DNA of 64,000 nt, taken from IMG/VR virus record IMGVR_UViG_3300009093_000003, positions 1 to 64,000 of that record; one strand, given 5' to 3'. The translations under genes and the position numbers were made by a program. The DNA comes from a virus. Position 1 is the stretch's first letter, and every line of letters begins with the position of its first letter. Of the stretch, positions 37,131-62,877 are shown one piece after another. The notes beneath the pieces are model-generated. The model was not told the DNA's origin, did not search any database, and was given only the letters and a program-made list of their open reading frames with translations.

Positions 37131-37131
37131 A

Positions 37132-40100
37132 TCACATTGTAAGGCAAATAATTTGTATTGTTGTCGGGTCGTTAACCGTTCCAGTAAAAGTAAGAAAATA
37201 GTCGTTCGGGCCGGTATATAAAACTGAACTAACCTGTACACCGCCAACGAATAGCGCTAAATACGTGTGTCCAGGGAAAGACGGTGTGCCAGTACCGGTT
37301 ACCTTTACGGTTAACCCTGCTCCGCCTGTGGTTGTATATGCAGCATAAATACGCTGCCCGTTGCTCATAGGGAAGCCTGCAAATACCGGTGTGCCCGAAC
37401 AGGTGCCGTTGGCTACCGCCGAAATACCAACGTTGTACTGGCTGTAGATACTGTAGTTACCTGCCGCAGCCGCTAAGGTTGTCGCCGTAAACGTCCCGGT
37501 TTGCGCACCTATGGTCAATGTTGTGCTTACCGAGGTTGAATTGCTTGCACTGGTGGTAAGCCGCACCTGTATACTGTCCCCGGCTACCGTTGTGCCGGCC
37601 GCGCTTGTCCATGCACCACCATTGATGCTGTATTGTCCGCTGCCGCCCGATATGCTAATCGGTACAGCAATATTCGGCCCCGATACCGTCACGTTGTTGA
37701 TACTTGGCTCCACGGTATTCAATGGCTGCCCTGTGATCGCTATGAAGCTAAAAGGATTTACCGTTGTATCACCCGCTATCCAGTTTAAACAATTGTTGAT
37801 TGTGGTTAACGAGCCGCCAGGGGGAGTGAAACTAAACATCGCTGTATCGCCGCCGCTATAGCCCGGCGTTGGGGTATAGGTAACAACCCCGGTAGCGCCG
37901 TTATAGCTTGCGGTGCAATGCGCACCGTTAGGCGTAGCCGAAACATCGCCGGGGGTAATGACATAGCTATTAAATGGGTTCCAATCGGCCAGCGTGAACG
38001 GGAAAAAGAAAAGTTGTCCACCGTCTGCCTCAATGGTTAATACCGCTTCTTCGTAATAATCACTATAGTAAAAATTTATACGTTTTCCCTGTGAGTACGC
38101 CAGTTGCAATAGGTTCTGAAAAAACTTCGTCATTTTACCGCTTATCGGCTCTATCCGGCCTGCAACAATACGGTAAGGCAATGATTTATTAGGGTCAATA
38201 AAATACATGGTACTATATCGCCTGCAATATGCCTTTGTTAAGCCTATGCCAACGTTTTCGTTATCGTACCGCCCGTTATTAAGCAATATTGAACTTATGG
38301 ACTGGCCTGTAAGTTCATCGTTCAATACCGTATACGCTTCATTAACCGGTATCCTGAAAACGCCTAATTCCTGCAATACCCATAGTTCCTGCCCCACTTG
38401 GTCCATAATTTGAATACCGCCCTTGCTTGATGATGTTTGCCCGTTATTGTTGCCGTAAATATGCGCGGGATAAGCCCTGTTTAGCCCGTTTATGCGGCTC
38501 CCCAAAACATATGGCTGCCCGGTAATTATCAGCGCCTGTTGCTCGCTTTGCTCAAGCACATCATAATAGGTTCGTACCCGCCCATAGGAATGATAGTTCG
38601 ATTGGTAAAAGTCACTGTAATTTAAGTCTGTTGCCAAAACGCCTATCGGTGGATTTGTATATGGCTTTATCGGGTCAGGGAACTGCCTGGTCTTATAATA
38701 AGCGCCTACGCTAATATTAAATGCAGTTTGGGTAATTACGCCGTTTACAACCGGTATCGGTTCACCGATCTCAAACCACTCTGTGGTGTTAAGCGCAGTG
38801 CTTGCCGTGGCTGATTGCGGCGCAAGGGAATAAAGCCGCATAAATATTGCCCGGCCATCGATCTGAAAACCGTTGTAATAAATATGCCCGTTGTTAAATG
38901 TGAACGCTGCTGAATTTTCAACCTTTACCAAATAAGTCCCGGCATCATAGCCTAAAACGGCTAAGTCAACACACGGCTGATTGAAAAAGTTGTTCCCATT
39001 GGTTACTAAGGATACGATTGTTAATGACCATCCGGTGCCGCCTGTTACCGTTCCTGTGAGCACATCACCCACGGTATAGCCACTCCCAGCGGTGGTTATC
39101 ACAACGCCTGTTACAACGTTCCCGGCCACTGTTACCGTGCCTATCGCGCCAGTCCCGGTACCGCCTGTCAATGATACGTTAGTGTATGTTCCATTAGTGT
39201 ATCCGGTTCCGGGTGTAATGCTAAAGGTATTTACAGCGCCGATAGATGCGATCCAGTAATGCAGCGTACACCTGTCGCCAGGCGCAAAGTCATACACCAA
39301 ATTGGTGCTTACTCCCTGCTGTGAATATTCGGCGTTTAATAGCGATAATGAGTTGAGGCTAAAAACCAGTATGCCGCCCTCTGCCGTAGCAAGATTGCCG
39401 AATGTCTTTGGTAGGACAGCGTAGTATTGCCCCGCTTCCGCACCTCCGGTAGTCCCGCCCACATTGGTAATGTAGTCACCCGTATTATAGGTATCATTAT
39501 GCCCAAGGTTAGTGTAATCCGCTCCGGCCACGACAAGGTTTGCCGGGCTTGCCGGGGTTGTTATTTGGTAGGTGTCGCCAATGTTCCCGCTATTTATAGC
39601 CAAACCGGGGCTATTGGTACGCGCATCCCAGCTGCCCTTAAATGTTACCAGGGTAGAGATAACATCCAAAACCTTCAATACGTTTGGCTTAGTAACCATT
39701 ATCTGCCCGAAAGCCGCGCCTGCCGGGGCTGCTGTTGTATTTATAGTAAAGTTTAGTTGTGTGGCATTACCGTTCTGCTGCGCGTATGAGGGTAATGTAA
39801 CTATATTGCTGTTGTCTGTTGTTACCGGCATTGGCCTCATCTTATAGTCGAACCAGCCTATTGCCGTTTGTACCGAGCAATTGTCAAGCATGGTCGGTAT
39901 GGAGTTGGCTACCGAAGCACCGGCGAAATAAAGTTCTACCGAAAAGGTTTGCAACCCGAAATATGGTGCATCCGTCCAAAATATCTGGTAGCCCCCGCCC
40001 GGCGCTGTTTGATAACTACCGCTCAATGTTTCTGCAATAGAGGTCACCACGGCCAGTAAATTGCCATCCTGCGCTATCGGTACAGTATATGAAAAATTTC

Positions 40101-42292: not shown

Positions 42293-42933
42293 GATACTGG
42301 CTCCCCTGTTGAAATATTTTGTTGTTGTATCTTGTAATCCATTGCAAGTTCATTAAGGAGTTCAAGCATAATATCATCCTGTACGTCCTTTGGAACGTTT
42401 AGCACACTGTCAAGTATAGTCGTTCCCGGTGGGACTGCACCGACTAACTTCATATTTACCGGCCCAGTTATAATCGACGGTAAGTTTTCAAAAACGATAT
42501 TGCCATTTTCAACTTTAAAAAGCTGTATCCCCTCTTGCGCCGGGATTGGTGGCAATCCATTTTGCATAAACTCATACCGATTGCTCATCGGCACACACCA
42601 CACGTTAGGATAGCCCGTAAATGATATTTGCGCTATTTCCCGCCCTAATGGTAGCCCGGCTGGCGTGGCCGGCATAACAGCGTATTTGTTCCCCGTGGAA
42701 CTATCGGTGAGCAATGGGCAGTTGTTGAAAACACTTATAAATTGGTCATTCGCGTAGGTGGCCTCTGATAAATTTGAATTGCCATAGGCTGATTTTACCG
42801 CTGCTTTAGCAACCTTCATCGCTGTGCGTTCGGCAATAAAACGCTCACTTATTCCCGATTCTGCCGTGGGATAAGCATCGTAATGCGCCTTTATGACGAT
42901 CTGGCTAAACTTACGGTAGGTTACTTGTGCCAT
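42289..42933 (-). CDS. Connector-type structural protein, 214 aa
   Basis: Helical N-terminus (IVIKAHYDAYPTAESGISER...) and beta-rich C-terminus with YPNVWCVPMSNRYEFMQNGLP and VNMKLVGAVPPGTTILDSVL. One base overlap with the previous gene. No family name, but size and order fit a head-tail connector. Confidence 0.5.
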   Translation of the reverse strand: MAQVTYRKFSQIVIKAHYDAYPTAESGISERFIAERTAMKVAKAAVKSAYGNSNLSEATYANDQFISVFNNCPLLTDSSTGNKYAVMPATPAGLPLGREIAQISFTGYPNVWCVPMSNRYEFMQNGLPPIPAQEGIQLFKVENGNIVFENLPSIITGPVNMKLVGAVPPGTTILDSVLNVPKDVQDDIMLELLNELAMDYKIQQQNISTGEPVS

Positions 42934-44108
42934 TATTGTTGTGTTTGTGCTGATTTTTCAGCGAAACTCGTTAATTCCTTATCACGCGCCGAAATTGCGG
43001 CATCGGCAAGCGCTATATCAATAATTGTACTGATATCATCATTATTCCACTTTGGCTGCACTGACGTGTTCGGGTCATATATCGGTCTTATTGAACCAGG
43101 CACAAGGCTTGACACAGTTATTGAAAAGCCTGAACCAGTCCCGCCAATATTGCCGTTTGAGGCTGATAAAGTGTCCCCGTTTTTATAAATCTTTCCCGGA
43201 TTGGTAAGCGTAACGCTTGTTACCGCATTGCCCGAAACTACGATTGTTGCCAATGCGCCATTCCCGGCGCCGCCAGTTAACGGAACGTTAGTGTATGTAC
43301 CATTAGTGTACAAACTGCCGCCTACAAGCCCGGTCAGTGTTGCAATATAGCCGTTTAGTGTGTAGCCCCAAAAAGACCAAACCGGCTGCTGCAAGTAAAC
43401 CATTTTTACCACACCAACATTTATGGGGTAAAAACCAAAATAATCGGCATATTGCGTATAAATGGCAAATTCCTGCGTTGGCGGTTCAAACTCGCTTGAA
43501 AGATGCTTGGCAATTTTATTCTTTTCTACACGCTCTATGGCTTTATCGGTTGTGCTATTCAGTGTATTAACCACCAATCCCCACCCGGTGCCGGTCAAAC
43601 CTAACGTAGCCTGTAATGCGTCTGTAATGGCATATCCTGTCCCTAACTTAGTAAATATCACCGTTGTCACCGCGCCATCTGCCACAATAACGTTAGCTAC
43701 CGCCCCGGTGCCTGTTCCGCCATCAAGTTCAACATCGGTATAAGTGCCGTCAGTATAACCGCTGCCTGGTACAATGGTTATGGTGCCTATTACGCCAGTA
43801 TCGGGTTGCGGGAGATAAGAACTTAGGCTATCCACATGAAGCAAATTCATGTCTGTAAAAAATGGCAGTTTCCCCGTAGCGTCAACCTGTAGCCAAAGCG
43901 GATCACTCATCCACTTGCTGATACTGTCGCTTATTGTTTGCTTGCGGTAGTACTCATCATACCGGGTATTGAAAAACTTTAATTCAGCGCTCTGCCAAAA
44001 CCTATTGAATTTATCAGGCGTTACGTTTGACGACACGCCGCGCGTCCCCGCCCGGTCGTTAAAAAGTTTTTTGGCGTCATCAATGTTGTATTGCACTGGC
44101 ATGCTCAA
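42933..44108 (-). CDS. Structural protein with two Gly-rich beta modules, 391 aa
   Basis: Helical N-terminus (NIDDAKKLFNDRAGTRGVSS, WQSAELKFFNTRYDEYYRK) and two insertions of about 75 residues each: VPGSGYTDGTYTDVELDGG... and SLYTNGTYTNVPLTGGAGNG.... The same module occurs once in the 1431-aa tail protein. The C-terminus is helical again. The rest resembles a ring or adaptor protein. The modules are probably surface decorations that could bind host glycans (inference). Confidence 0.6.
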   Translation of the reverse strand: MSMPVQYNIDDAKKLFNDRAGTRGVSSNVTPDKFNRFWQSAELKFFNTRYDEYYRKQTISDSISKWMSDPLWLQVDATGKLPFFTDMNLLHVDSLSSYLPQPDTGVIGTITIVPGSGYTDGTYTDVELDGGTGTGAVANVIVADGAVTTVIFTKLGTGYAITDALQATLGLTGTGWGLVVNTLNSTTDKAIERVEKNKIAKHLSSEFEPPTQEFAIYTQYADYFGFYPINVGVVKMVYLQQPVWSFWGYTLNGYIATLTGLVGGSLYTNGTYTNVPLTGGAGNGALATIVVSGNAVTSVTLTNPGKIYKNGDTLSASNGNIGGTGSGFSITVSSLVPGSIRPIYDPNTSVQPKWNNDDISTIIDIALADAAISARDKELTSFAEKSAQTQQ

Positions 44109-50060: not shown

Positions 50061-52511
50061 TTAAGCCGCTACCGGCTGTTCTTGCTGTGGTGGGATTTGT
50101 TGTTGTCCAGGCTGCGCTTGTGGTGGTGGTTGATTTTGCTGATTTCGTTGCGCTTGTTGCTGCATGGCCGACAGCATAAATTGTTTTTGAGTTTCTTCGA
50201 CTATTCCCAATCCACTCCAAACAAATTCTGGAATATCCGCAATGGTGGCTCCCGGTTGACTTAATATAGCATCAGCAACCTTTTCTTTTAATACACCAGC
50301 CCATGTGTATGAAGCCTTCACGCCCTCGTTAGCTCCCTCCTGCTGCATTTGCTCTATCTTGTTTTTATGCGATTGTTGCTCCAATTCCATATCCCCCTTC
50401 GCCTTAACTTCCGCAGCGGCATTGGCCTGTGCAACATTGTTAGCTGAATTTTTCCTTGCCGTTTCTTCGTCTTCGGCTTTCTTTTGTTTGGCATATTGTG
50501 CCAGCATAAACGACCGGTATGTTGGATCGTCTATTAGCGATAACTCTGCCACGGCTTCCAAACCTATTTGCCCTTGTTCCAATGCTATCTCAATTAGATG
50601 ATCCCACTTCTCCTGATCGGCTTTATCCAGTACAACTTCGATTTTTGTGTCGAAGAGCAGTTGAGCAATATCTTCGCCCATATCCCTCATATACTTAATA
50701 TCATCCTCTCCTAATGCCATATTGTACCCGTCAAAGCTATCATCTTTCAAGAAAAATTTATCAAGCAACAGTAACTCCACATTCTTAGCAACACCCTTTT
50801 TAATGTTTAAAACGGTTTTGTAAACATAGTTTGACGGTTCTGCAGCAATCTCCCTGGCATCATTCAGCGTTGCGTTAGCGGTTGCCTGGTTGGTGATGTT
50901 ACCGCTTGCAAGGTTATTGTCCCCGGTTACGATTTGCAACTTTTTATAGGTTGACCAGAATTGTTCTTCCAGTTCTTTTAACTTTTGGCTTGCCGGGTGC
51001 GTATTTGGCTTTATTGGCGGTTCCTGCGGCCTGTCGTCGCCCTCTATGTCGCGGCCCATGTAATATTGATTACCTGTTTGCAGGTAGATACCCAAAAGCT
51101 GCATAGGCGATAGTACACCTAACCCCTGTCCCATGTCGATATTAGCTATGCCAAGCGTGTCAATACTAAAGCCATCCGGTGCCGTCATAGCAATTATAGC
51201 CTGCGACTTGCACCAAATGTTTTGCAGCATATCGATCATCGGCATCATTGTCTCAACCAATGATTTGTTGTTGCAATGGTGGTTATTGTGCATGTGTATG
51301 GTGTACGGGCTTCTTATCTCCACCAAATTATTATTTGGTTTCAGCATATCCTTAGCCAGTCCCCATTCCAGCACAATGTTGACGTCACCCTCTACAATGC
51401 CAACGCCGTGATAAGCTACATAATAAGGCTTAGATTGCTCTTTTCTTTCGGGTGGCAAAGCCTCTAACCTGTCCTCATACAGTTTGTCCCTGCCAAAACC
51501 TACCTTTTCCTTGCGATACGTGAGGTTATACAGCGTTTTATAGTACAAATCGACTATAGGTACGCTCACCGCGTCATAAGGCCGTGCAAGGGCTGTATTG
51601 TAGCTATAATCCCAATCACACGTCATATCGGTGGCATTGCCATAACTGCCAATAAACGTTTGCGATATTTCCCATAATTTTTCTTCGGTTACTACCGGGC
51701 TGCCGTCCGGCTTTGTGCGTCCGCTCGTGCGCAGCCTGACTTCTGATATGGCTATGTTTCGCGCTTGCCCCTGCCATTGCCAATCCTCGAAATTATCAAG
51801 TTCACTGTAAGAGCTAATAAAGCATTCGGGCTTTACCACCGGCGTTTTTATCCATCCGTTGCCGTTTAATTCAGTCAGGCAGCATGCCCAGCCGCAGCAA
51901 AAGGTATCCCATATCAAACGCTTTTTTATCACATCGTCCCATTCGTTCTGCTCAAAGACTATGTTTTCGGCCATTTGCATGATCGTTTCTTCACGAAGCG
52001 GCTTTATTTTAAACCTTACGTCGAGTTCGCGTTCTGATTTTGGGTCGTGATCTGAAAAGTGCTCTAATTGCAAACCTGATTGTTCCTGTAACCCTTGCAG
52101 AACCGGGCGGTAATTCATTTTAAACCTGGCTTCGTCTTTTTCCTTTTTCTTTTTGTCGGAGGCAAGCTGGCCGGAAGCACGGCACTTTATTTTTTCTATT
52201 CGTTCAAGGTATCGGTCGGTTTTGGCGTTGAGCAATGGGGTTGCTATGGCAAGAGGGGAATAGTCGATGTTTAGCACAATCGGCGTTCCCTCAATTTTTA
52301 TCAGGTCACGGTATTGATCTTCCGGCTGCTTGCCCATCGCGTATAAACGAGACTTTTCGTAGCGTATCATCCTGGCCGCGTATGTTTCCGCACCGTAGCC
52401 GCTTTTCCACCGGGCATAACATTGGCGAAGCACTTTTAAGCCGAAGTCGTAACTGTCTTTCCTTTTATCGGGGGATAGGGGATTTTCGGTGAGTGGTGAT
52501 TCCGGGTACAT
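50061..52511 (-). CDS. Portal protein, 816 aa
   Basis: The N-terminal part is helical and basic (LRQCYARWKSGYGAETYAAR). LNIDYSPLAIATPLLNAKTD is followed by the central acid/Trp-rich domain (IWDTFCCGWACCLTELNGNG, FISSYSELDNFEDWQWQGQA) and a helical stem (NLVEIRSPYTIHMHNNHHCN, PSNYVYKTVLNIKKGVAKNV). The C-terminus is a Gln-rich tail (QQQAQRNQQNQPPPQAQ). This corresponds to large portal proteins of crAss-like and similar phages (about 750-850 aa). Position next to TerL and before scaffold/MCP supports it. Confidence 0.8.
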   Translation of the reverse strand: MYPESPLTENPLSPDKRKDSYDFGLKVLRQCYARWKSGYGAETYAARMIRYEKSRLYAMGKQPEDQYRDLIKIEGTPIVLNIDYSPLAIATPLLNAKTDRYLERIEKIKCRASGQLASDKKKKEKDEARFKMNYRPVLQGLQEQSGLQLEHFSDHDPKSERELDVRFKIKPLREETIMQMAENIVFEQNEWDDVIKKRLIWDTFCCGWACCLTELNGNGWIKTPVVKPECFISSYSELDNFEDWQWQGQARNIAISEVRLRTSGRTKPDGSPVVTEEKLWEISQTFIGSYGNATDMTCDWDYSYNTALARPYDAVSVPIVDLYYKTLYNLTYRKEKVGFGRDKLYEDRLEALPPERKEQSKPYYVAYHGVGIVEGDVNIVLEWGLAKDMLKPNNNLVEIRSPYTIHMHNNHHCNNKSLVETMMPMIDMLQNIWCKSQAIIAMTAPDGFSIDTLGIANIDMGQGLGVLSPMQLLGIYLQTGNQYYMGRDIEGDDRPQEPPIKPNTHPASQKLKELEEQFWSTYKKLQIVTGDNNLASGNITNQATANATLNDAREIAAEPSNYVYKTVLNIKKGVAKNVELLLLDKFFLKDDSFDGYNMALGEDDIKYMRDMGEDIAQLLFDTKIEVVLDKADQEKWDHLIEIALEQGQIGLEAVAELSLIDDPTYRSFMLAQYAKQKKAEDEETARKNSANNVAQANAAAEVKAKGDMELEQQSHKNKIEQMQQEGANEGVKASYTWAGVLKEKVADAILSQPGATIADIPEFVWSGLGIVEETQKQFMLSAMQQQAQRNQQNQPPPQAQPGQQQIPPQQEQPVAA

Positions 52512-52541: not shown

Positions 52542-54656
52542 TTAACCTGTATTTTTAAAAGCTAAACTTACGCCGCCGCGGGCATGTATGGGCAATATTT
52601 TCAAATTGTTCTTTTTAACTTCGTTTTTAACCTTAACACTTTCGCTCAATGCCATCAAAGCATATCCCCATGCCATACATGCGTCATATTTAGTCCTGTT
52701 ATCCGGGTCAAAGTCCCGCATATCGGTAAGAAGCCTTTTAAACCGTATTTTATGAATGTTATTAAGCGCATACTCTACCATGAATGAAAGATGCTGCTCG
52801 ATAGTGTCCTTGCTTTGCTGGCTCGGCTTGCCATATACTTCCGTCCCATCCCACCTTTTTGTTGTAACCAGGTAGCCATGCTTAACCACGCTTTCCTTTG
52901 GCGAAGCCAGTCGCCTTGACGGGCTTGTAAACCAATCTTCCCATGATGTTTCAGCACGTTCGGCAAGCATCTTTATCCCGTAATATTCGATTCCTAAAGC
53001 GATTTGCTGGTGAAAATCTTCTTTTGATTCCGGGTGTCCCAAAAACATCGCTACAGGGGCGTACGAATTGATATTAAAAGGATCAAGCGCCTTTTCGCGG
53101 GTGTGTATCATTAAACAAGCATCCGACCCGTCCTCAATAGCCGATTTCGAGTGCATGTAACTATCCATACCCGACGCACCATAAATTACATTATCAGGGC
53201 ATTTAATGTTGTTTTTATAGACGTAGCGATTATTATTTTCAATAAGTTCTAAAATATACCACATTCCGGCAGGATCGTCTTCCGGCATAGACTTTCCTTC
53301 AAGGTTGCGCCTGAATGTCATTCTTCTGCCCATTTCCTTAGCGCCTGTTTCTTCAAGTATTTCCTCAATTTTTGCTAATTGGGCATTAACATCATCAAGT
53401 TTAAATTTACACTTGTTGTTGGCTCCCTGAAAACATTCCCTCCATTCAAAAGGATTGTTCCGCATTTCTTCGGCAAGTTCTTCGGGATCCGCGGCTTTCA
53501 TATCGCGGGTCACCTGTAACCATTGTTTAGCTCCGATATATGGGTCAGGGCATGTTTCCCACTGCTTGGTAACAAAGTTCCAGTATTTGTGTGTTTTAAG
53601 CCATTCTATTTGCTGTTCGGTTGGATTTTCAATAATACTCTCACCGTATTTTCCAACATATCCCAAATAACCACGATAAGCCGGCAAGAAAAATCGCTTT
53701 AATTTTGTTTTGGTACGGCCATACTTATCTACCTTTCCTGTTATATGGTCCGAGCCATCCCATATTTCCCTAAAGTTATCACCGCCTTGGTCGCCTTTGT
53801 TTACCGTGCTGAATACCGATACCTTTCCAACAACCGTAGTACCAGTTATCAGGGTATCGCCTATTTTGTTTAAACAGGTTTTTACATTGACCTTTTTCCA
53901 CTTAGCCGCTTCATCAATAGTTACGTGACGCATTGGTCGTCCGTCATAGGCAGTTTCAGAGGTATCAAGATAGTTAACCCGGTTATTCTTTCCCCTGTCT
54001 GCCGAAAGAAACTTATTGTTCTTGCTGATACGCGGCACCTGCTTTGCTATCCAAATTTCGCTGTCATTGGCTGCGGCAATCTCCGGCATCAGGAACGGTG
54101 GAACGTTTTCAAGGCATTTACGTACCATTAGGTACATTTCAAACGCATCATCACCAGTTTTAGAGACAATCCCTGAAAGTGTATCGTTATCCAATAATGC
54201 AATAAGCACCTTTATGGAGGCCGACATTGAGGACAATCCGACACGCCGCCCTTTTATTCCTATATCTCCGAAGCAAAACCTGTCCTTTTCACACAACTCA
54301 AAAAACCGGAAATATTCAAGGGATGTTTCTTTAAATGTTGGCCGGTGCCCGTTAAGCAAAATACACCATTGATGAAAGAAATAACAGTAATTATTGAAAT
54401 AAACCGGCTCCCCTTTTATCATTATCCATGAGCCCACGTGCAAACGCTCTACTTCTTCTTCATACCATTTCAACTGATCGGTGAACCATAATTCTTGCGC
54501 AACTGTCCAATCCCATTGTTCATAGGTGGTGTCTCGAACCCAAACTTGATCTGATATTTTATTGGAAGAACGGCGTATACTGGATTGTTTTGGCGTTTTC
54601 GGGCATTCGTAACGCATACCCTGAACCTCAACAACTATTACATCACCTTGTGCCAT
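52542..54656 (-). CDS. terL: Terminase large subunit (TerL), 704 aa
   Basis: ATPase motor and nuclease. A Walker A-like motif (residues about 133-143, GIKGRRVGLSS) and Walker B (about 244-250, HVTIDEA) are separated by TGDDAFEMYLMVRKCLENVP. The nuclease part contains YGASGMDSYMHSKS, GSDACLMIHTRE and a C-terminal YDACMAWGYALMA with conserved acids. The motor packages DNA through the portal and then cuts it. The length and Arg-rich A motif resemble crAss-like TerL. Its start overlaps the TerS candidate by 14 bases. Confidence 0.9.
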   Translation of the reverse strand: MAQGDVIVVEVQGMRYECPKTPKQSSIRRSSNKISDQVWVRDTTYEQWDWTVAQELWFTDQLKWYEEEVERLHVGSWIMIKGEPVYFNNYCYFFHQWCILLNGHRPTFKETSLEYFRFFELCEKDRFCFGDIGIKGRRVGLSSMSASIKVLIALLDNDTLSGIVSKTGDDAFEMYLMVRKCLENVPPFLMPEIAAANDSEIWIAKQVPRISKNNKFLSADRGKNNRVNYLDTSETAYDGRPMRHVTIDEAAKWKKVNVKTCLNKIGDTLITGTTVVGKVSVFSTVNKGDQGGDNFREIWDGSDHITGKVDKYGRTKTKLKRFFLPAYRGYLGYVGKYGESIIENPTEQQIEWLKTHKYWNFVTKQWETCPDPYIGAKQWLQVTRDMKAADPEELAEEMRNNPFEWRECFQGANNKCKFKLDDVNAQLAKIEEILEETGAKEMGRRMTFRRNLEGKSMPEDDPAGMWYILELIENNNRYVYKNNIKCPDNVIYGASGMDSYMHSKSAIEDGSDACLMIHTREKALDPFNINSYAPVAMFLGHPESKEDFHQQIALGIEYYGIKMLAERAETSWEDWFTSPSRRLASPKESVVKHGYLVTTKRWDGTEVYGKPSQQSKDTIEQHLSFMVEYALNNIHKIRFKRLLTDMRDFDPDNRTKYDACMAWGYALMALSESVKVKNEVKKNNLKILPIHARGGVSLAFKNTG

Positions 54657-55014
54657 TTATTTTAGCCTTTACTTTTTTGCTGGCTTCTTCAAAGGGATTT
54701 CCAGTTGTTTTTACAATTTCAACCTCCGCTTCTTCAACTGTTTTTTCGCCAGTGGTGGGTAAAGATAATGATAAAGCAAGAAAATCTTTTTTGTTTTTTA
54801 CTACAGCAAGAAAGTTTGCAAAGGTCTGCCCATCTCCATTAAGCAATTTAAAATCTTCTTTTTTACCGCCCTCGGCTAATAATTCAAAATCATCAGCAAG
54901 TACATCACATACATGGGCGAGTTCAAGCTGTAGCTTTGATACACCTCTCCCCTCTAAATAATCAATATAGGCAAGTATTTCAGCCGATACCTCTGATAAA
55001 TCAGGTTTTTTCAT
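54643..55014 (-). CDS. Terminase small subunit candidate, 123 aa
   Basis: Helical protein directly upstream of TerL, with its end overlapping the TerL start by 14 bases. LSEVSAEILAYIDYLEGRGV and FANFLAVVKNKKDFLALSLS are long amphipathic helices typical of oligomerising TerS proteins, and the C-terminal tail is basic (KVKAKINGTR). No sequence family is certain; assigned by order, length and shape. Confidence 0.5.
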   Translation of the reverse strand: MKKPDLSEVSAEILAYIDYLEGRGVSKLQLELAHVCDVLADDFELLAEGGKKEDFKLLNGDGQTFANFLAVVKNKKDFLALSLSLPTTGEKTVEEAEVEIVKTTGNPFEEASKKVKAKINGTR

Positions 55015-55693
55015 TTGCTTTTATTCTTTTAAATTCTTCCTGGTCAACAAAAACGCCCTTTGTCGATCCGTGCATCGGCGGCAGCATGCCCCCGCCCTGC
55101 AATAACCGGCGCTGGTGCCGCGTCAAATATACCTTTCTGAAATAAGCGCCGTCCTCAAAATTAAATGGTGTTAGCTTACCGGCCTTTAATTCGGCCATTT
55201 TCTTATCGTAATACTTCTCATAGTCGGCTTCCAGGTCTTTGCCACGCTGCGTTAGCACCCATGCATTACGCGGACGCATTTTAATTTTGCCCGGCACTTT
55301 CGTTTTTAAAACATATCCGCCTTTTTCCAATTCTTCCAAAATTTCTACAACTGGCTTTCTTAAATAATTTCGGTTGTACAACTTAAAATGTTGCCTCAAA
55401 AATACGCCAACATAGCTTATAATAATCAGCACCTCCGCCTCTAATGCTGTTATCCCGTTAAGTGCATAAAACCGCCTGAAAAGCAAATGTCCGCTAAAAG
55501 AATAGTAGTAGTCGGGCTTTTTATCGACAAAGGTATATTCGTCAAATGACTTTTGCAGTTCTTTTGCTTTCGCCTCGGCTGCCTGCGCCCGTTCTTTCCA
55601 TAGTTTACGCTCTGCGGCCATGTGCATGAGCTTTATGCCCTGTTTCTTATGCGCCGCCAGTAACTCACTGTATGTAAACTTACGAAGCCCCAT
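55001..55693 (-). CDS. Winged-helix (MarR-like) protein with N-terminal coiled coil, 230 aa
   Basis: Residues about 1-50 form a charged coiled coil (YSELLAAHKKQGIKLMHMAA, ERAQAAEAKAKELQKSFDEY). Then LNGITALEAEVLIIISYVGV...PVVEILEELEKGGYVLKTKV...AWVLTQRGKDLEADYEKYY gives the helix-turn-helix and wing of a MarR-like fold. The C-terminal 60 residues are Pro/Gly/basic. It overlaps the TerS candidate. In many phages a winged-helix protein of this kind binds DNA in packaging or late-gene control; the exact role is unknown. Confidence 0.6.
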   Translation of the reverse strand: MGLRKFTYSELLAAHKKQGIKLMHMAAERKLWKERAQAAEAKAKELQKSFDEYTFVDKKPDYYYSFSGHLLFRRFYALNGITALEAEVLIIISYVGVFLRQHFKLYNRNYLRKPVVEILEELEKGGYVLKTKVPGKIKMRPRNAWVLTQRGKDLEADYEKYYDKKMAELKAGKLTPFNFEDGAYFRKVYLTRHQRRLLQGGGMLPPMHGSTKGVFVDQEEFKRIKANEKT

Positions 55694-56605
55694 TTAGCTA
55701 ACCACCCCGATAATAATATCCATATTTAAAATGCACTGCCTGTTAGGCAAGATACAGCCGTGGTTACGGTACACAAGCAATTTGTCGCCAACTGACATTC
55801 GACCTGGCTTTACCTTGTCGCCGATAGCAAGTACACTGGCGTACGTAAACCGTGGTTCCGGCGTTTCAAGATGCTTTGGATAGAGTGTCCGGGCGTGCGC
55901 CTTGTCAAGATGCGGATAGTGCTTGTCAACATATTCTTCCCGCGCATCCTCGTTAGCTATCTTCCATTGCTCCCAAGCCGGATCGGGCAAATACTCCACC
56001 AATACAACATCGCCAACCGGTAAATAACCATCATTGGTTTCAATGCCTACGATTTCCCGCTCATCAACCTTGATATACTTTTGCCCGTTGTAAATAAGGT
56101 CGTACTGAAAGGCATCGACGGTGATAACAACCGTTCGAATATCTACCAATGGGTTGCAATCTTCCGGCAAATACTTTATTTTGATTTTTACCGGTTCTTT
56201 GGTTTCCAGCGACGTCGATAAAATTATACCCGACGAAGTTCTTTCATATTCACTGTGTACCTCGTCGCCAAGATAAGTTCCCGGCATACACCGGATGGGG
56301 TCAACAAGAAATAAGATCATTTTTGCCGGTATCGCAGCGCGTTCCTCGTCAATCCATTTAGCCACTTCAAACGCGCCATAGTGAACGAACGCTCGGTGGC
56401 CTGCGTACCCATCAGACAATATGTCAACCACCTTCGGATTGATCTTTCTGCGGTCGGTAGTTACGCCCCAGGCAGTATCGGCATCCTCGTCCCCTTCCTC
56501 AATCACATAACGCTCCGGCACAAACAAACCACTGTCCTGCTTAACCAGCGCTGACGATTTATCATACTCGAATTTAACTATTATATTTCCGTTGGTTGGC
56601 GTCAT
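55694..56605 (-). CDS. GroES-like (co-chaperonin-fold) protein with repeated domains, 303 aa
   Basis: The middle section SGIILSTSLETKEPVKIKIK..., then RTVVITVDAFQYDLIYNGQKYIKVDEREIVGI (cited as features: VDAF, YDLIYNGQKYIKV, EREIVGI) matches the second half of GroES, where the family has a strand, a GTEVxxDGxxY turn and an ExDIxAI end. Similar strands occur near the N-terminus (NIIVKFEYDK, GLFVPERY) and the C-terminus (KVKPGRMSVGDKLLVYRNHG, CILNMDIIIGVV). So it looks like two to three GroES-type barrels in one chain. T4 gp31 is a known phage co-chaperonin. A role in capsid or tail folding is inferred. Confidence 0.5.
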   Translation of the reverse strand: MTPTNGNIIVKFEYDKSSALVKQDSGLFVPERYVIEEGDEDADTAWGVTTDRRKINPKVVDILSDGYAGHRAFVHYGAFEVAKWIDEERAAIPAKMILFLVDPIRCMPGTYLGDEVHSEYERTSSGIILSTSLETKEPVKIKIKYLPEDCNPLVDIRTVVITVDAFQYDLIYNGQKYIKVDEREIVGIETNDGYLPVGDVVLVEYLPDPAWEQWKIANEDAREEYVDKHYPHLDKAHARTLYPKHLETPEPRFTYASVLAIGDKVKPGRMSVGDKLLVYRNHGCILPNRQCILNMDIIIGVVS

Positions 56606-57585
56606 CTTGCTATCTCAATTAGTCGGGTTTCCCTTAGTTTGTTAATTTTACTCAAAAGTAATTCATCGCAAATAAATTCCCAACTATCATCATGGGCACT
56701 TTCTAAAACATACTGATATTGTCCACTCAACATTTTAGGTAATTCAACTAATGGCAAAATACCCGGCTTGTTAAATTCAGGAAATTCTTTATTGCCGAAA
56801 TATGCCGCACCCGAAAAAATGCTTTCTAACCAGCTGCAATTAGATTTAGCCCGGTTAAACTGGCTATCGGTTAACGGATAAAAAAATACCTGTGGGTTTA
56901 TGTCGTGCATCATTTTATAAAATTGCACAGTTGACCCGCCCGGATTATGAAAAAAGTTCCCGTATTTAACACGGTACTCTATCCATTCAAATTTTTGTCC
57001 AAGCCAATAAAAATGCCATTTTTTATTACTGTTGACTAATTTTACAATCCATTCTGCAACGCCAGGATAATAAATATCCCCCATATGGCTACCACCACCG
57101 CGCCACATTATCCGCTTATTTTTACCAAACGGCATTTTATCCTTTACCGGAAAGACAATTTCATTATGCGCATTCGGGATAACATGGATATTTTTATTGA
57201 ATAGTCTAAAAGAGTTCTTTATGCCCTCCGTTGCTACCCAAATTTCATCAAGAAGCGCCAACCCTTTTAATGTGTGCTTCTTGTCCCCGTTATAAACGCC
57301 AAACATGGGGTTGGTTTCCGGCACGTGCAGGCAGTCGTCGTCAAAATCACCTATGACTAACTTATGCATGTCCTTAGCCATCTTTATCAGGTTTAGATGA
57401 GATTCCGACGACGGCCTTGAAATTATAACAACATCATAGGGGTTTAAAAGATGTGATTTTATGTCGTGTTCTGTTGACCGGGTAATGGTAAAGTTTTTAT
57501 TTTTAAGATAATCCAACGGCATCATACGGTAGTATTCGGTAGCCGACTGCCAGTGATCGAAATATAAAACTTTTGTTACGCTCAT
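56602..57585 (-). CDS. Glycosyltransferase-like protein (GT-B type), 327 aa
   Basis: N-terminus with TKVLYFDHWQSATEYYRMMP and a DVVIISRPSSESHLNLIKMA alpha-beta pattern; VIGDFDDDCLHVPETNPMFG and then LDEIWVATEGIKNSFRLFNK, NIHVIPNAHNEIVFP (acceptor domain end). The second half has FGKNKRIMWRGGGSHMGDIY, SNKKWHFYWLGQKFEWIEYR and SNCSWLESIFSGAAYFGNKE, the usual donor-site helix with conserved Glu/Ser. Part of a chain of genes with four-base overlaps. Probably adds a sugar to a virion or cell-surface acceptor (unknown). Confidence 0.7.
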   Translation of the reverse strand: MSVTKVLYFDHWQSATEYYRMMPLDYLKNKNFTITRSTEHDIKSHLLNPYDVVIISRPSSESHLNLIKMAKDMHKLVIGDFDDDCLHVPETNPMFGVYNGDKKHTLKGLALLDEIWVATEGIKNSFRLFNKNIHVIPNAHNEIVFPVKDKMPFGKNKRIMWRGGGSHMGDIYYPGVAEWIVKLVNSNKKWHFYWLGQKFEWIEYRVKYGNFFHNPGGSTVQFYKMMHDINPQVFFYPLTDSQFNRAKSNCSWLESIFSGAAYFGNKEFPEFNKPGILPLVELPKMLSGQYQYVLESAHDDSWEFICDELLLSKINKLRETRLIEIAR

Positions 57586-58295
57586 TTCCTTTTCATTACC
57601 CTAATGTGTTCTATATTAAAAACAAAATCCCATTTTTCGCCATGTTCCTTCATATAATCAAGGAATGCATCAGTCACTGGCTGTATCCCTGCAAAATGAC
57701 CTGTAGGAGCAAAATTAAGATCGTTGCAACAATCGTCCATTACCAAAAAACCGCCACGATATACTAACGGAGCATAATTGTTAAGGTCGGCCTCTACATC
57801 GTTATACTCATGCGACCCATCAATATACACTATATCAAAAAGCGAATTTTGATTTGCAAAATTTACCGCTTCTTCTTCTTGAGAAAAACCGCGGTATAAG
57901 TTCGGATATTCAATGTTAAACTTGTCGTGTAGTTTTTGTATGTCTCCCTGGTAATCATCTTCTGTCCACCCGGTACCAGCGCCATTCATTGGTGTGATAC
58001 CGAATATATTAGCATTTTTACTGGCTCTGTTTGATAAAATTCGGATAAGGCTTATAACCTGGCACTTGTGGCAGCCGATTTCCAAAAACCTAAAATCATT
58101 TCGCATTTCATCCACTAAAAGTTTCCACACCCAATGAAAGGCGTCCTCTCCCATCCCGAAAACATGGTCACGAACCCATTTTCTATGCGTGCTCAACTCT
58201 GTATCATCGGCGACTAATTGCGATAACAAATGTTTTAAATGATAATGCGATTCCGGCGTATCGAGCCATTCTTGTTTTAATGTTTCTAAAGTCAT
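57582..58295 (-). CDS. Class I SAM-dependent methyltransferase, 237 aa
   Basis: FRFLEIGCHKCQVISLIRIL matches the Rossmann motif I (xxExG-x-G, here GCHKC). Later FDIVYIDGSHEYNDVEADLN (the IDG(x)H loop typical of Methyltransf_24-type enzymes acting on sugars and natural products) and GGFLVMDDCC are seen. The preceding helix DAFHWVWKLLVDEMRN is a common cap. Coupled by ATGA to a 27-aa membrane peptide and to the GT-B-like gene. Substrate unknown; a glycan is likely from the neighbours. Confidence 0.75.
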   Translation of the reverse strand: MTLETLKQEWLDTPESHYHLKHLLSQLVADDTELSTHRKWVRDHVFGMGEDAFHWVWKLLVDEMRNDFRFLEIGCHKCQVISLIRILSNRASKNANIFGITPMNGAGTGWTEDDYQGDIQKLHDKFNIEYPNLYRGFSQEEEAVNFANQNSLFDIVYIDGSHEYNDVEADLNNYAPLVYRGGFLVMDDCCNDLNFAPTGHFAGIQPVTDAFLDYMKEHGEKWDFVFNIEHIRVMKRK

Positions 58296-58375
58296 TTCTT
58301 TGTTTTAAAATAGACATATTGAGAATAGGCGAATGCATAAAATGAACAAATCAATGCTATTATCGGTGACGTCAT
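58292..58375 (-). CDS. Tiny membrane peptide, 27 aa
   Basis: MTSPIIALICSFYAFAYSQY and YVYFKTKK at the end. ATGA overlaps on both sides exactly fit it between the methyltransferase (start 58295) and the glycosyltransferase-like gene (stop 58372), strong evidence that it is translated. A single short hydrophobic helix; function unknown. Confidence 0.55.
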   Translation of the reverse strand: MTSPIIALICSFYAFAYSQYVYFKTKK

Positions 58376-59019
58376 AATTTTATCAATTCGTTAAATTTTT
58401 CATCAACTGTTTTTCCGTTAAGGTGAATAAAGCAGGGTTCATTTCCAAATATTTGCACCCGGTTATTATCATAAGTGTATTCTCCAGCAGCTATAAAACT
58501 ATGTGAATTGAAAATAGATTGCCCATAATCCGGCCTTATTTTTTGATGTTTTTCGTTCCCCTGCAACAAAAAACAAATGTTTAGCCATAATTGGTCATCT
58601 ATCTCATAAAATGGTGGGTAATATTCAAAAAGTTGTATAAATATCTCTGATTTTGCGTAATACAAACCACTATTTGGAAAGTTAAACCCATGTCCAAAGT
58701 CCGCATACTCATTTCTAAATGGTATCATTGACGGCGGCCACAGATTCTTTTCACAAGAAACTACCATTTGATCCGTTATCCACAATTTACTTTCAAATTC
58801 ATCAGGGCCGGCCAGCGCAACAACATCATGAGCGTCACAAAAAATAAATCGGTCAACCTCGGGATGCGATTTTAAATACTCATAGGTCGCAATAAGTTTT
58901 GTTCCGAACCCTTTCCATTCAGTTACAATAGCAACCCCATCCCACTTGTGTTTTCTAATGGAATCTAACAAGGTTTTGGCGAGCGAAATATCATTTGTTA
59001 CTGTGATTACCCTAAGCAT
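58372..59019 (-). CDS. Glycosyltransferase-like protein (PLOD/GT-A type), 215 aa
   Basis: The core DRFIFCDAHDVVALAGPDEFES carries the metal-binding DxH/DxD-like acids; then VSCEKNLWPPS, YADFGHGFNFPNSGLYYAKS (NSGLY) and DDQLWLNICF fit procollagen-lysine (PLOD-type) galactosyl/glucosyltransferase domains, also found in large viruses and phages. The enzyme probably transfers a hexose from a UDP-sugar. Coupled at both ends to neighbours. Confidence 0.7.
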   Translation of the reverse strand: MLRVITVTNDISLAKTLLDSIRKHKWDGVAIVTEWKGFGTKLIATYEYLKSHPEVDRFIFCDAHDVVALAGPDEFESKLWITDQMVVSCEKNLWPPSMIPFRNEYADFGHGFNFPNSGLYYAKSEIFIQLFEYYPPFYEIDDQLWLNICFLLQGNEKHQKIRPDYGQSIFNSHSFIAAGEYTYDNNRVQIFGNEPCFIHLNGKTVDEKFNELIKL

Positions 59020-59635
59020 CTCTACGCCTCCATAATCCTTTTTTAAAACCTTTTTTTATACACTCAAACCTATCGCCCATGTGTTGTTCTACCAATTCGA
59101 TAGGAATAAAATCAGATGTAATATCATCTATGCAAAGTATTGCGCCGGGAAGCATCCGGTCAGAAAACCAATCCACCTCATGATTAACGGATTCTACCGA
59201 ATGTGGCCCATCTAAATGAACAAAACTATAACCTGTACAGCCTATCTCATCAATATTGTAAATTGGCACAAAATCACCAAACCTTTCAAAATATTCATCG
59301 TCTGTCATACAGAAATAATGAAAGTCAACCGGGTTTTCAGCTACGTAAGCCCATAGTGCAGCCAGCGTTTCCGCTTTCATTTGATTGGTGTAATCGAGCC
59401 GGCAGGCTTCCATGTGTTCGCGTGGCTTATACAAAATTGATCCGTATGGATCGACCGCCACAACCGTTTTACCAGGGCAATATTGCCGGACAGCATCAAT
59501 AATAGTCTTTGTTCCCAAGCCGCGGCGAAGGCCAATTTCAATGCACATTCCCGATACATATTTGCTTAGTTCGACCGATTCGGTCAAAAATTCGTATTCG
59601 CCGCTGTCGCCGCTTATTTGGTAATTATTCCCCAT
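59012..59635 (-). CDS. Class I methyltransferase-like protein, 207 aa
   Basis: VSGMCIEIGLRRGLGTKTII is a Rossmann motif I (EIGLRRGLG), TVVAVDPYGS its second strand, YSFVHLDGPHSVESVNHEV (the DGxH loop) and MLPGAILCIDDI the end of the fold. The layout is like the methyltransferase at 57582. Overlaps by eight bases with the downstream glycosyltransferase-like gene and by 11 with the upstream GT2 gene. Substrate unknown. Confidence 0.7.
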   Translation of the reverse strand: MGNNYQISGDSGEYEFLTESVELSKYVSGMCIEIGLRRGLGTKTIIDAVRQYCPGKTVVAVDPYGSILYKPREHMEACRLDYTNQMKAETLAALWAYVAENPVDFHYFCMTDDEYFERFGDFVPIYNIDEIGCTGYSFVHLDGPHSVESVNHEVDWFSDRMLPGAILCIDDITSDFIPIELVEQHMGDRFECIKKGFKKGLWRRRDA

Positions 59636-60371
59636 CGTAATAATATGGCAATTCGCCTTTTTGTATCATTTCCATGTAAACCGAGGCTTCGGTAAGCCAA
59701 ACACTGGCTTCCTTTTTCTTCCATTCGGTGTAATCAGTTCCACCCCGATCAAGATTTGTGATTTTGATGTGCGGTAAAAAAGCGTTTCTAAATCCTGCAG
59801 CAATAGACCTAACGCAATAAATACTATCATCAAATCCGTACAAACTCGGCTGCGAAAGTCCGCCGCATTTGTCCATCATCAGCGGATTATACGCGGTACA
59901 AGTTCCAATAATATCAGGGCATATTTCAAGTTTGCCCTCCATTTTTGTACGATAGTGAATGTTTTCGTGATCGGGCCGTTGCCAAATGCCATAGCGTTTT
60001 AATCCCAGAATACCAATGTCAGGATGTTTTTTTATTTGCGCTTCCAATTGTTCAACCCAGCCGGCTATTGACCATGTAAGATCATCGTCACATTTTATAA
60101 CCACCTCTCCAGGCTCCCGCGCATACAACCCTTTATTTATCCCTTTTGCTGTGCCAATATTTTGTTTTAAATGCAAGATGGTCACATTTAAGCCATCTGT
60201 TGGCAAACTATCGAGATATGCTTCTGTTTCAAGTGTACACGAATTATTTACGATTATCCAGCGATGTTTTTTAAGGTCAACGGTATTCATCAAAGATGTG
60301 AGGCACTCTTTGACAATAGGCAATTTCTTATTGTCTTTCGTTGCGAAAATGCATTGAACTATGAGCGACAT
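59625..60371 (-). CDS. Family 2 glycosyltransferase, 248 aa
   Basis: GT-A fold: N-terminal VQCIFATKDNKKLPIVKECL, IIVNNSCTLETEAYL, HLKQNIGTAKGINKGLYARE and the DxD-type EVVIKCDDDLTWSIAGW; C-terminal FDDSIYCVRSIAAGFRNAFL with EDxx-like acids. Typical of GT2 enzymes that use nucleotide-activated sugars. First full enzyme of the glycosylation cassette in the direction of transcription. Confidence 0.85.
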   Translation of the reverse strand: MSLIVQCIFATKDNKKLPIVKECLTSLMNTVDLKKHRWIIVNNSCTLETEAYLDSLPTDGLNVTILHLKQNIGTAKGINKGLYAREPGEVVIKCDDDLTWSIAGWVEQLEAQIKKHPDIGILGLKRYGIWQRPDHENIHYRTKMEGKLEICPDIIGTCTAYNPLMMDKCGGLSQPSLYGFDDSIYCVRSIAAGFRNAFLPHIKITNLDRGGTDYTEWKKKEASVWLTEASVYMEMIQKGELPYYYDGE

Positions 60372-61462: not shown

Positions 61463-62170
61463 TCATATCAAAATTAATTTAGCTTGGTTTTTATTAGCTT
61501 CAAATTTTTTCAGATAATCATTATACCGATCTTCCTGCGCGTTGAAATAGTCCCCATCCAGTTCTGTAGCATAAAAATCAAATCCAAGTCCATGTGCAGC
61601 TAAACGGTGGCTACCACTTCCTAAATGCGTGTCAAGTATGTTATATCCCGGCTGCGCGTATTTTGTCAGGCACCAGCGATAAAGTTGAATTGGTTTTTGT
61701 GTTGGATGTATCCTAACTTCATTGGTAGATTTATTTCCGTTGTTTAATTTTCCATCTGCAGTACTTCCCTGCATCATACCGTTCCACATGAAAGAAAATT
61801 TACGAACACTTGATTTAAAGTTTGTCCATGCCAGTTCGCAATCGGCAAAATTAGTTCCAATATTGCATTTGTCCCAAACTATAAAACATCTGGTTGCGCC
61901 TAAATAGTCCAGAAAGTAATTACCGCCCCAAATTATCTGATGTTCTGATACCCGGAATAGTTCTTTAAAATAATCTTCTGAAGGTATTTCGTAATCCCAA
62001 AATTCCTTTTTGTACATTTTGGTTTTTGCAAGCTTTGATCTGCTGATGTTGCGATGGGCGCTTTCTTTTATCCCGTAAGGCGGATCTACAATTGCAAGAT
62101 CAAAAAACTTATCAGGATACCTTGCCATCATACCCATGCAATCCTCATTTGTTACTATACTTTTACTCAT
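61463..62170 (-). CDS. Adenine/cytosine-N DNA methyltransferase (beta-type motif order), 235 aa
   Basis: Motif IV DPPYGI (residues 29-34) comes first; the SAM site LDTHLGSGSHRLAA lies near the C-terminus with FDFYATELDGDYF after it. The order IV...I fits beta-class N6-adenine or N4-cytosine enzymes. HPTQKPIQLYRW, between them, is typical. No recognisable restriction partner is nearby, so the enzyme is probably solitary, protecting phage DNA or affecting its regulation. Its end lies next to a 96-base gap with no gene; start overlaps the D12-type gene by four bases. Confidence 0.85.
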   Translation of the reverse strand: MSKSIVTNEDCMGMMARYPDKFFDLAIVDPPYGIKESAHRNISRSKLAKTKMYKKEFWDYEIPSEDYFKELFRVSEHQIIWGGNYFLDYLGATRCFIVWDKCNIGTNFADCELAWTNFKSSVRKFSFMWNGMMQGSTADGKLNNGNKSTNEVRIHPTQKPIQLYRWCLTKYAQPGYNILDTHLGSGSHRLAAHGLGFDFYATELDGDYFNAQEDRYNDYLKKFEANKNQAKLILI

Positions 62171-62877
62171 ATCAATTCAAGTTTTTGTTGAATGTTGTTG
62201 AAGTGGGTGTGATAATTTGTCCAAATAACCTCTGAATGTTTACCTGTTAAAACCTGTTGTGTCACCATTGGTAAAAATGGCAACCATGTCGCCTTATCAT
62301 TTTCACAAACTATTGCCTGCCCTTCCCGGGACCTGCACCAATCTGCCAAACTATTAAAATCTATTTTTTTTGACGAATGAATGTAAGCCTGTCCACCAAC
62401 AGTGTATGGCGGGTCAATAAACCATGTCACAACCTGATTTGGTATTTCATCATAGCATCCCTCCATAATTTTCCAATGCCTGATTTTAAATAATTGTGAG
62501 GCTATTTTTTTGATGGTATAATTTTGTTGATTGGGCCTATGCCTTGCGCGTGGCGTTGCAATTTTTCGTGGATGAATAAATCCAAAACCAACCAAAAAAC
62601 CGACTAAATATCGTTGGGCATCGCAATCATAGACGTGATTGTTAATATTTTCTCCGGCTTTAAAACGGGGTAATGACAAAATATCCTGTTCACTACATTG
62701 TTGCAGCCATTTCCAAATCTCTGTAATAACGGGATATTTATCAACTAATAAGACATCTTTTTCCCAATATTTTAAAGCGTACCTTGCTGTACCGGCAAAT
62801 GGTTCAATAATTTTTTCATGAACAGGCGCAGGGTATAAATCAATAATATTTGTCTTTGCTCCGTAATACGACCACAT
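62167..62877 (-). CDS. D12-class (Dam-like) N6-adenine DNA methyltransferase, 236 aa
   Basis: SYYGAKTNIIDLYP at the N-terminus and IIEPFAGTARYALKYW (motif I), with VTWFIDPPYTVGGQAYIHSS (motif IV) at about residue 150, are hallmarks of the D12 family (Dam, T4 Dam, DpnM). The C-terminal VCENDKATWLPFL and KHSEVIWTNY match the family ending. Probably methylates adenine in a short target. Translationally coupled to the second methyltransferase. Confidence 0.9.
   Translation of the reverse strand: MWSYYGAKTNIIDLYPAPVHEKIIEPFAGTARYALKYWEKDVLLVDKYPVITEIWKWLQQCSEQDILSLPRFKAGENINNHVYDCDAQRYLVGFLVGFGFIHPRKIATPRARHRPNQQNYTIKKIASQLFKIRHWKIMEGCYDEIPNQVVTWFIDPPYTVGGQAYIHSSKKIDFNSLADWCRSREGQAIVCENDKATWLPFLPMVTQQVLTGKHSEVIWTNYHTHFNNIQQKLELI

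What the first reader, a model, noticed from the sequence alone, without database searches (positions are those of the whole stretch)
56602..60371. Coupled glycosyltransferase and methyltransferase cassette just upstream of the packaging genes
Five enzyme-like genes (GT2, methyltransferase, PLOD-type glycosyltransferase, methyltransferase, GT-B-type glycosyltransferase) plus a 27-aa membrane peptide are joined by overlaps of 4 to 13 bases. They run straight into the GroES-like, winged-helix, TerS and TerL genes on the same strand. Overlaps and gene order are visible in the sequence; family calls are by motif. Late expression with the virion genes suggests a sugar carrying methyl groups is put on a virion protein, on DNA, or on the cell surface. 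I know of no described system with this exact composition.
Basis: partly seen in the sequence, partly recalled or inferred. Interest (0 to 1): 0.65.

Follow-up and report, generated by a model that had tools for sequence, protein, structure and literature searches.

The report
Phage locus for methylated glycans
A group of uncultured bacterial viruses carries, next to the genes that pack DNA into new particles, a compact set of sugar-adding and sugar-methylating enzymes whose middle genes are swapped between viruses, most likely so that each virus coats its particles with its own methylated sugar chain.

Summary
Five minus-strand genes (GT2, methyltransferase MTa, PLOD-type GT, methyltransferase MTb, GT-B GT) overlap by 4-11 bases and run without a gap into the GroES-like, wHTH, TerS and TerL genes. 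Pfam supports four family calls; the fifth has a GT-B fold model (Z 23.7). MTb's best structural matches are mostly sugar O-methyltransferases. The PLOD enzyme keeps the Mimivirus R699 active-site residues.

The block is a recurrent unit: in 67 non-redundant PLOD loci, GT2 is nearby on the same strand in 59/59 testable cases and MTb in 57/63, upstream of terminases of three PHROG families. PLOD-GT and MTb are fused in three contigs. GT2 and GTB follow phage phylogeny, whereas MTa and MTb (strongly) and PLOD (weakly) have moved between phages. Two relatives replace PLOD with sugar-nucleotide or transaldolase genes. The nearest established analogue is chlorovirus A064R/A061L.

I read it as a strain-variable glycan locus making O-methylated sugars, most likely on a virion protein; the acceptor is inferred. 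The 27-aa peptide is not conserved. DNA hypermodification is disfavoured (no thymidylate-synthase-family enzyme in 25 genomes).

The parts
59625..60371 (-). GT2: GT-A fold family 2 glycosyltransferase, first gene of the locus
   Evidence: PF00535 1.9e-12; DxD (D95, D97) invariant in 33 phage homologues; no strong hydrophobic segment
59012..59635 (-). MTa: class I SAM O-methyltransferase, Methyltransf_24 family; optional in relatives
   Evidence: PF13578 3.5e-9; acidic residues D142 and D170 invariant in 19, D171 in 18 of 19
58372..59019 (-). PLOD-GT: collagen-glucosyltransferase-type GT, R699/LH3 family
   Evidence: PF25342 1e-11; family profile vs Mimivirus R699 3.4e-35 and human LH3 about 1e-29; R699 active-site residues conserved in 34 homologues
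58292..58375 (-). 27-aa hydrophobic ORF between PLOD-GT and MTb; probably not part of the conserved locus
   Evidence: absent in L032, L033 and L035, where PLOD and MTb overlap by 4 bases
57582..58295 (-). MTb: O-methyltransferase of the MeT1/MycF/SpnH structural type, presumed sugar methylase
   Evidence: PF13578 4.4e-10, PF04989 RMNT_CmcI 4.9e-5 just over cut-off; model pLDDT 94; best PDB matches SpnH, MycF, MeT1, NovP; D159, D187, D188 invariant in 34; fused to PLOD-GT in three contigs
56602..57585 (-). GTB: GT4-like GT-B glycosyltransferase, last gene of the locus
   Evidence: phrog_7162 1.9e-16; model pLDDT 94.3; Z 23.7 to BshA, similar to HepE and PimB'
55694..56605 (-). GroES-like/head morphogenesis-like gene, conserved next to GTB
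   Evidence: phrog_931 0.0058 only; present in cassette-plus and cassette-minus relatives
55001..55693 (-). winged-helix-like gene, variable between relatives
   Evidence: PadR 0.05, below cut-off
54643..55014 (-). TerS candidate
   Evidence: position and size; no convincing family match
52542..54656 (-). TerL
   Evidence: phrog_6681 1.2e-68
50061..52511 (-). portal protein
   Evidence: phrog_6547 5.4e-39

Best explanation
This is a strain-variable glycan-assembly locus of an uncultured podovirus-like group. GT2, PLOD-GT and GTB add sugars one after another from nucleotide sugars in the host cytosol. MTb, and MTa where present, then O-methylate sugar hydroxyls; PLOD-GT and MTb work as a pair on the same sugar or on neighbouring ones. 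The genes are joined to the packaging genes, so the product is probably made during assembly. The most likely acceptor is an abundant virion protein (head or tail), giving particles a methylated glycan coat whose structure changes when middle genes are exchanged. Shown here: gene content, operon layout, folds, conserved active sites, co-occurrence, fusions, exchange of middle genes. Inferred: sugar identity, order of steps, acceptor, late timing, benefit (altered adsorption, or shielding from recognition or proteases).
For: Five enzymes with conserved catalytic residues. MTb's top structural neighbours are mainly sugar O-methyltransferases (SpnH Z 19.6, MycF 19.3, MeT1 19.1, NovP 18.9). PLOD-MTb fusion in L116, L138, L139; GT2 plus MTb-type fusion in Dethiosulfatarculus, Rhodobium and megaphage LR756501. 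GT2 near PLOD on the same strand in 59/59, MTb in 57/63 testable loci. The block sits upstream of TerL of phrog_6681, phrog_2 (two groups) and phrog_9, and upstream of a phrog_10 major head gene in L125. Variants put a HAD phosphatase/sugar-1-P nucleotidyltransferase or a transaldolase in PLOD's place. Portal, GT2 and GTB keep the clade window+L032+L033, while AU tests reject GTB- or portal-supported clades for MTb (p 0.0002, 0.0005) and MTa (p 0.0001, 5e-5) and weakly for PLOD (0.018). Cyanophage S-8S53 has a GT25+PLOD-GT protein and 2OG oxygenase genes beside its tail-fibre gene.
Against: No acceptor was found. The one candidate, a repeat insert in virion protein 42933-44108, does not track the cassette strictly. 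No collagen-like Gly-X-Y tract in proteins of these loci, so the collagen acceptor of the R699 relatives does not apply. Position next to packaging genes is not proof of a virion target. No transcript or proteome data.
Confidence: 0.55

Rival explanations
1. The locus modifies the host's surface glycan (LPS, capsule or a lipid-linked precursor) late in infection, to stop superinfection or to stop new particles sticking to debris.
For: GT2 also weakly matches the GtrB-like PHROG (4e-4); phage serotype conversion by GTs is a known kind of system; GTB has PimB'-, TarM- and HepE-like structural neighbours, some of which act on membrane or cell-wall acceptors.
Against: No strongly hydrophobic segment in any of the five enzymes and no flippase- or polymerase-type gene seen among them. 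Placement is in the packaging operon of several lineages.
Confidence: 0.27
2. The locus hypermodifies the packaged DNA: sugars on a hydroxymethylated base, further methylated, to resist restriction.
For: Phage DNA glycosylation with diverse glycans is known (Pyle 2024, cited in PMC12619734); the block lies next to packaging genes; MTb matches a PHROG labelled 'DNA methyltransferase'.
Against: No thymidylate-synthase-family hydroxymethylase in any of 25 genomes, with the control positive in 9 of 14 genomes; no Tet/JBP match, although that control did not ring. MTb and MTa are of the O-methyltransferase type, whereas real DNA methylases lie separately at 61463-62877.
Confidence: 0.08
3. The enzymes make a small methylated glycoside or modify a host protein or RNA, with no link to the particle.
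For: TrmR, a tRNA methyltransferase, is also among MTb's structural matches (Z 18.6); the R699 relative can make free kojibiose (PMC11838735).
Against: Repeated joining to packaging and head genes in lineages with different terminases and exchange of middle genes fit a surface-exposed product better.
Confidence: 0.1

Closest known systems
Chlorovirus PBCV-1 A064R and A061L (major capsid protein N-glycan; PMC9614988)
   Same: Virus-encoded glycosyltransferases plus two sugar O-methyltransferases, one of them fused to glycosyltransferase domains; loss or change gives antigenic variants of the capsid.
   Different: Eukaryotic algal virus; A064R fuses two rhamnosyltransferases with a methyltransferase, while here separate GT2, PLOD-type and GT-B enzymes are used. 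Homology was not tested directly; no A064R structure was listed in the PDB searches with the GT2 and PLOD profiles.
Glycosylated mycobacteriophage virions (Freeman 2023, cited in PMC12619734)
   Same: Phage glycans on capsid and tail tube subunits, with an effect on antibody recognition.
   Different: No homologue of the cassette proteins found in Mycobacterium phages; no PLOD-type enzyme known there to me.
Mimivirus R699 and human LH3/PLOD glucosyltransferase (PMC11838735, PDB 9dyt)
   Same: Same GT domain; the R699 active-site residues are conserved.
   Different: R699 and LH3 act on collagen hydroxylysine sugars. Here there are no collagen repeats and no PF13640 hydroxylase in 25 genomes.
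Sugar O-methyltransferases MeT1, MycF, SpnH, NovP
   Same: Best structural matches of MTb; conserved acidic residues as in the metal-dependent type.
   Different: Only 13-18% sequence identity; sugar specificity unknown.
Cyanophage Kanaloavirus S-8S53 / S-CAM9 PLOD-GT proteins
   Same: PLOD-type GT in a phage, beside a tail-fibre gene.
   Different: Comes with GT25 (shown in S-8S53) and 2OG oxygenase genes and no MTb; GT domain about 31% identical to the L116 fusion.

Membership tests
GT_PLOD / R699-type glucosyltransferase domain | Domain profile match and conserved donor/acceptor residues (R699 K62, E114, W118, N138, D162, D163, Q164, H216, N218) | tested here: met
   PF25342 above cut-off; R699 3.4e-35; K, E, N, D, Q, H, N invariant in 34, D141 in 33, W in 23 and Y in 11
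GT_PLOD / R699-type glucosyltransferase domain | Collagen-like Gly-X-Y acceptor encoded nearby | tested here: not met
   Longest Gly-X-Y run is 5 units, inside TerL, over all ORFs of the fetched loci
GT_PLOD / R699-type glucosyltransferase domain | Partner lysyl hydroxylase | tested here: inconclusive
   PF13640 absent from 25 genomes, control positive in 2 of 14; other hydroxylase families not searched
Metal-dependent sugar O-methyltransferase (MycF/SpnH/MeT1 type) | Fold and conserved acidic triad | tested here: met
   Z about 19 over 184-192 residues; D159, D187, D188 and H162 invariant in 34
Metal-dependent sugar O-methyltransferase (MycF/SpnH/MeT1 type) | Activity on a sugar hydroxyl | not testable with these tools
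   Only indirect: fusion to GT domains
GT4-like GT-B glycosyltransferase | Two Rossmann-type domains with the GT-B arrangement | tested here: met
   Full-length match Z 23.7, rmsd 3.2, 300 residues
Virus-encoded virion glycosylation | Glycan covalently on a virion protein | not testable with these tools
   Needs MS of virions
Virus-encoded virion glycosylation | Glycosylation genes linked with virion genes | tested here: met
   Same strand, upstream of terminase or head genes in several lineages
Phage DNA hypermodification by glycosyltransferases | Hydroxymethyl-base pathway gene in the genome | tested here: not met
   PF00303 absent in 25 of 25 genomes, several of them fragments; Tet/JBP result uncontrolled
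Gtr-type serotype conversion | Membrane GtrA flippase and membrane-anchored GtrB | tested here: inconclusive
   No cassette protein has a clearly hydrophobic segment; GtrA not searched by profile

The most novel reading that the evidence does not exclude
A phage counterpart of a bacterial capsule or O-antigen locus: conserved end genes (GT2 and GTB) hold a swappable middle (methyltransferases, PLOD-GT, sugar-nucleotide or transaldolase genes), so that phages with nearly the same capsid genes make different methylated virion glycans, i.e. phage serotypes kept diverse by some recognising partner (host, phage-sticking matrix, or grazer).
Probability: 0.4. Interest if true: 0.8.

Novelty: new variant of a known kind. 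Interest (0 to 1): 0.62.

Why it matters
Virion glycosylation is known in only a few phages, and why phages do it is open. This locus is common in uncultured phages of several terminase types, absent as a set from annotated phage records, and evolves by exchange of single enzymes on little-changed capsid genes. If it decorates virions, it gives a natural series of phages that share a capsid but differ in glycan, which would make the purpose of phage glycans directly testable. It also supplies compact PLOD-GT/O-methyltransferase pairs and fusions for glycoengineering.

Tried and rejected
(1) Repeat insert in virion protein 42933-44108 as the glycan acceptor: it looked linked to the cassette in the first relatives but is missing in several cassette-bearing genomes (L040/L045, L046, L051, L070, L071, L082), and the protein is long in cassette-free L012, so dropped. 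(2) Collagen-like acceptor: no Gly-X-Y tracts. (3) DNA hypermodification: PF00303 absent. (4) 27-aa peptide as a component: not conserved. (5) Host by cellular copies: the PLOD pattern search of genome contigs found nothing; the MTb search found only distant cellular methyltransferases. (6) Bacteroidetes-type promoter at the cassette: pattern at chance level; sigma-70-like and terminator-like counts also at chance, so expression timing stays inferred from gene overlap. (7) GTB and MTa profiles against PDB sequences: no convincing hit; MTa was not modelled. (8) Literature: searches for phage gene clusters of this kind, or for methylated phage capsid glycans, gave no match, in an open-licence library only. 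(9) Clades not significantly rejected: GT2 L037+L039 (p 0.09), MTb window+L032+L033 (p 0.49), PLOD L037+L039 (p 0.054), MTa window+L032+L033 (p 0.20); so the low MTb identity between window and L032 may be fast change, not replacement.
Full report
What is there. The window is 64 kb of a 74.7-kb IMG/VR virus record. TerL belongs to phrog_6681 and is about 25% identical to TerL of Cellulophaga, Maribacter and Flavobacterium phages. The portal is phrog_6547 and gene 36180-37247 carries the crassvirus muzzle C-terminal domain, so this is a distant relative of those podovirus-like groups. On the minus strand, GT2, MTa, PLOD-GT, a 27-aa ORF, MTb and GTB overlap by 4-11 bases and continue without a gap through the GroES-like, wHTH, TerS and TerL genes.

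What the proteins are. Pfam places GT2, both methyltransferases (Methyltransf_24) and PLOD-GT above curated cut-offs. GTB has no Pfam match, but its model (pLDDT 94.3, 38-sequence alignment) is a full-length GT-B/GT4 fold, Z 23.7 to BshA and 22-23 to HepE and PimB'. A profile of 34 phage PLOD-GTs matches Mimivirus R699 at 3.4e-35 and human LH3 at about 1e-29. The residues that R699 uses for donor and acceptor (listed in PMC11838735) are invariant or nearly so, except the tryptophan, which is Tyr in 11 of 34. The MTb model (pLDDT 93.9) is closest to sugar O-methyltransferases: SpnH, MycF, MeT1, NovP, Z 18.9-19.6, with the tRNA enzyme TrmR close behind; the acidic triad D159/D187/D188 is invariant. 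MTa keeps acidic residues at the equivalent spacing. None of the five has a convincing membrane segment.

It is a recurrent unit. Scans with TerL, GTB and PLOD alignments brought in over 100 loci. Across 67 non-redundant PLOD loci, GT2 lies nearby on the same strand in 59 of 59 testable cases, MTb in 57 of 63, GTB in 56 and MTa in 19 of the 67. Order varies: GT2-MTa-PLOD-MTb-GTB here, GT2-PLOD-MTa-MTb-GTB in L009, GTB-x-GT2-PLOD-MTb in a second large group. The block lies upstream of terminases of phrog_6681, phrog_2 (two groups) and phrog_9, and upstream of a phrog_10 major head gene in L125. It is missing from the locus, and PLOD is missing from the whole record, in relatives such as L004, L011, L012 and L016, so it is optional. 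Among 50,697 annotated phage records only single distant relatives turn up: MTb in a 735-kb megaphage, MTa in Pelagibacter phage HTVC027P, PLOD-type GTs in Synechococcus phages, weak GTB hits in two phages and a weak GT2 hit in one contig.

Fusions. PLOD-GT and MTb are one protein in L116, L138 and L139. MTb-type domains are fused to GT2 in Dethiosulfatarculus and Rhodobium and in the megaphage. These are independent pointers that MTb methylates what the partner GT adds, or its acceptor.

Exchange of the middle genes. Among window, L032, L033, L034 and L035, whose portals are 69-84% identical, GTB is 54-76% and GT2 55-79% identical, while MTb is 39-59% and PLOD ranges from 41 to 72%. Portal (100), GT2 (99) and GTB (94, not starred) keep the clade window+L032+L033; PLOD rejects it weakly (AU p 0.018). 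MTb rejects L037+L039 (p 0.0002), L014+L046+L051 (0.005) and the five-member portal clade (0.0005); MTa rejects L037+L039 (0.0001) and L014+L051 (5e-5); GT2 rejects none of the clades tested. With about sixteen tests, the PLOD results (0.016-0.018) and the MTb 0.005 result would not survive a strict correction, the four smaller MTb/MTa values would. All trees were quick-mode. Two relatives keep GT2 and GTB but replace PLOD: L023 has a 193-aa protein plus a HAD phosphatase/sugar-1-phosphate nucleotidyltransferase fusion, L025 a homologous 193-aa protein (57% identical), a 167-aa protein, a transaldolase and a longer Methyltransf_24 protein. Sugar-nucleotide-type genes in that slot are what a glycan locus predicts.

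Mechanism. Best reading: the three GTs build a short glycan in the cytosol from nucleotide sugars and MTb/MTa cap it with methyl ethers, during assembly, most likely on a virion protein. PBCV-1 is the clearest precedent: A064R adds two rhamnoses and one methyl, A061L a second methyl, and mutants are antigenic variants of the capsid (PMC9614988). In cyanophages S-8S53 and S-CAM9 a PLOD-GT protein (with GT25 in S-8S53) and 2OG oxygenase genes sit directly after the tail-fibre gene, which supports a virion-protein role for phage PLOD enzymes in general. Shown: genes, folds, active sites, linkage, fusions, exchange. Inferred: sugar identity, step order, acceptor, timing, advantage.

Rivals. DNA hypermodification is unlikely: PF00303 is absent in 25 genomes with a working control (the Tet/JBP control did not ring), and proper DNA methylases lie apart at 61463-62877. 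A host-surface target cannot be excluded; against it stand the apparently soluble enzymes and the conserved place among packaging genes. Small-molecule or RNA targets are less likely.

Novelty. Virus-encoded glycans with methyl groups are known, so this is a new variant of a known kind; its gene set, its spread and the exchange of middle genes are, as far as these tools show, undescribed.

Noticed in passing
window 52542-54656: TerL looks replaced: phages with portal 71-84% identical to the window's (L032-L035) have TerL only 27-30% identical to it, while phages with distant portals (L014, L003) share 59-60% TerL identity.
   Followed up: partly
window 42933-44108: Virion protein with a roughly 75-aa glycine-rich repeat domain inserted twice (once in L005, L006, L009; absent in L003, L004); the domain resembles parts of tail-fibre and baseplate PHROGs.
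   Followed up: partly
L254 3362-5227; L255 3368-5209: Synechococcus phages S-8S53 and S-CAM9: a protein with a PLOD GT (in S-8S53 GT25 plus PLOD GT, annotated as 2OG oxygenase) with two 2OG-Fe(II) oxygenase genes between it and the tail-fibre gene, like a collagen-type hydroxylysine glycosylation set.
   Followed up: partly
window 36180-37247: Crassvirus muzzle protein C-terminal domain (PF25729, 1.8e-6) in a genome whose other tested virion proteins gave no crassvirus family match.
   Followed up: no
window 61463-62877: Two adjacent DNA methylase genes (N6_N4 type and D12 type) absent from the pieces examined of three close relatives.
   Followed up: no
L253 5170-6714: 735-kb megaphage LR756501 encodes a GT2 plus Methyltransf_24 fusion protein related to MTb.
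   Followed up: partly
L138 9217-10005; L051 7067-7927: GIY-YIG homing-type endonucleases inserted between cassette genes; a possible vehicle for exchange of the middle genes.
   Followed up: no
L012 4796-5407: Cassette-free relative with a Tad6-family (Thoeris inhibitor) gene upstream of its terminase.
   Followed up: no
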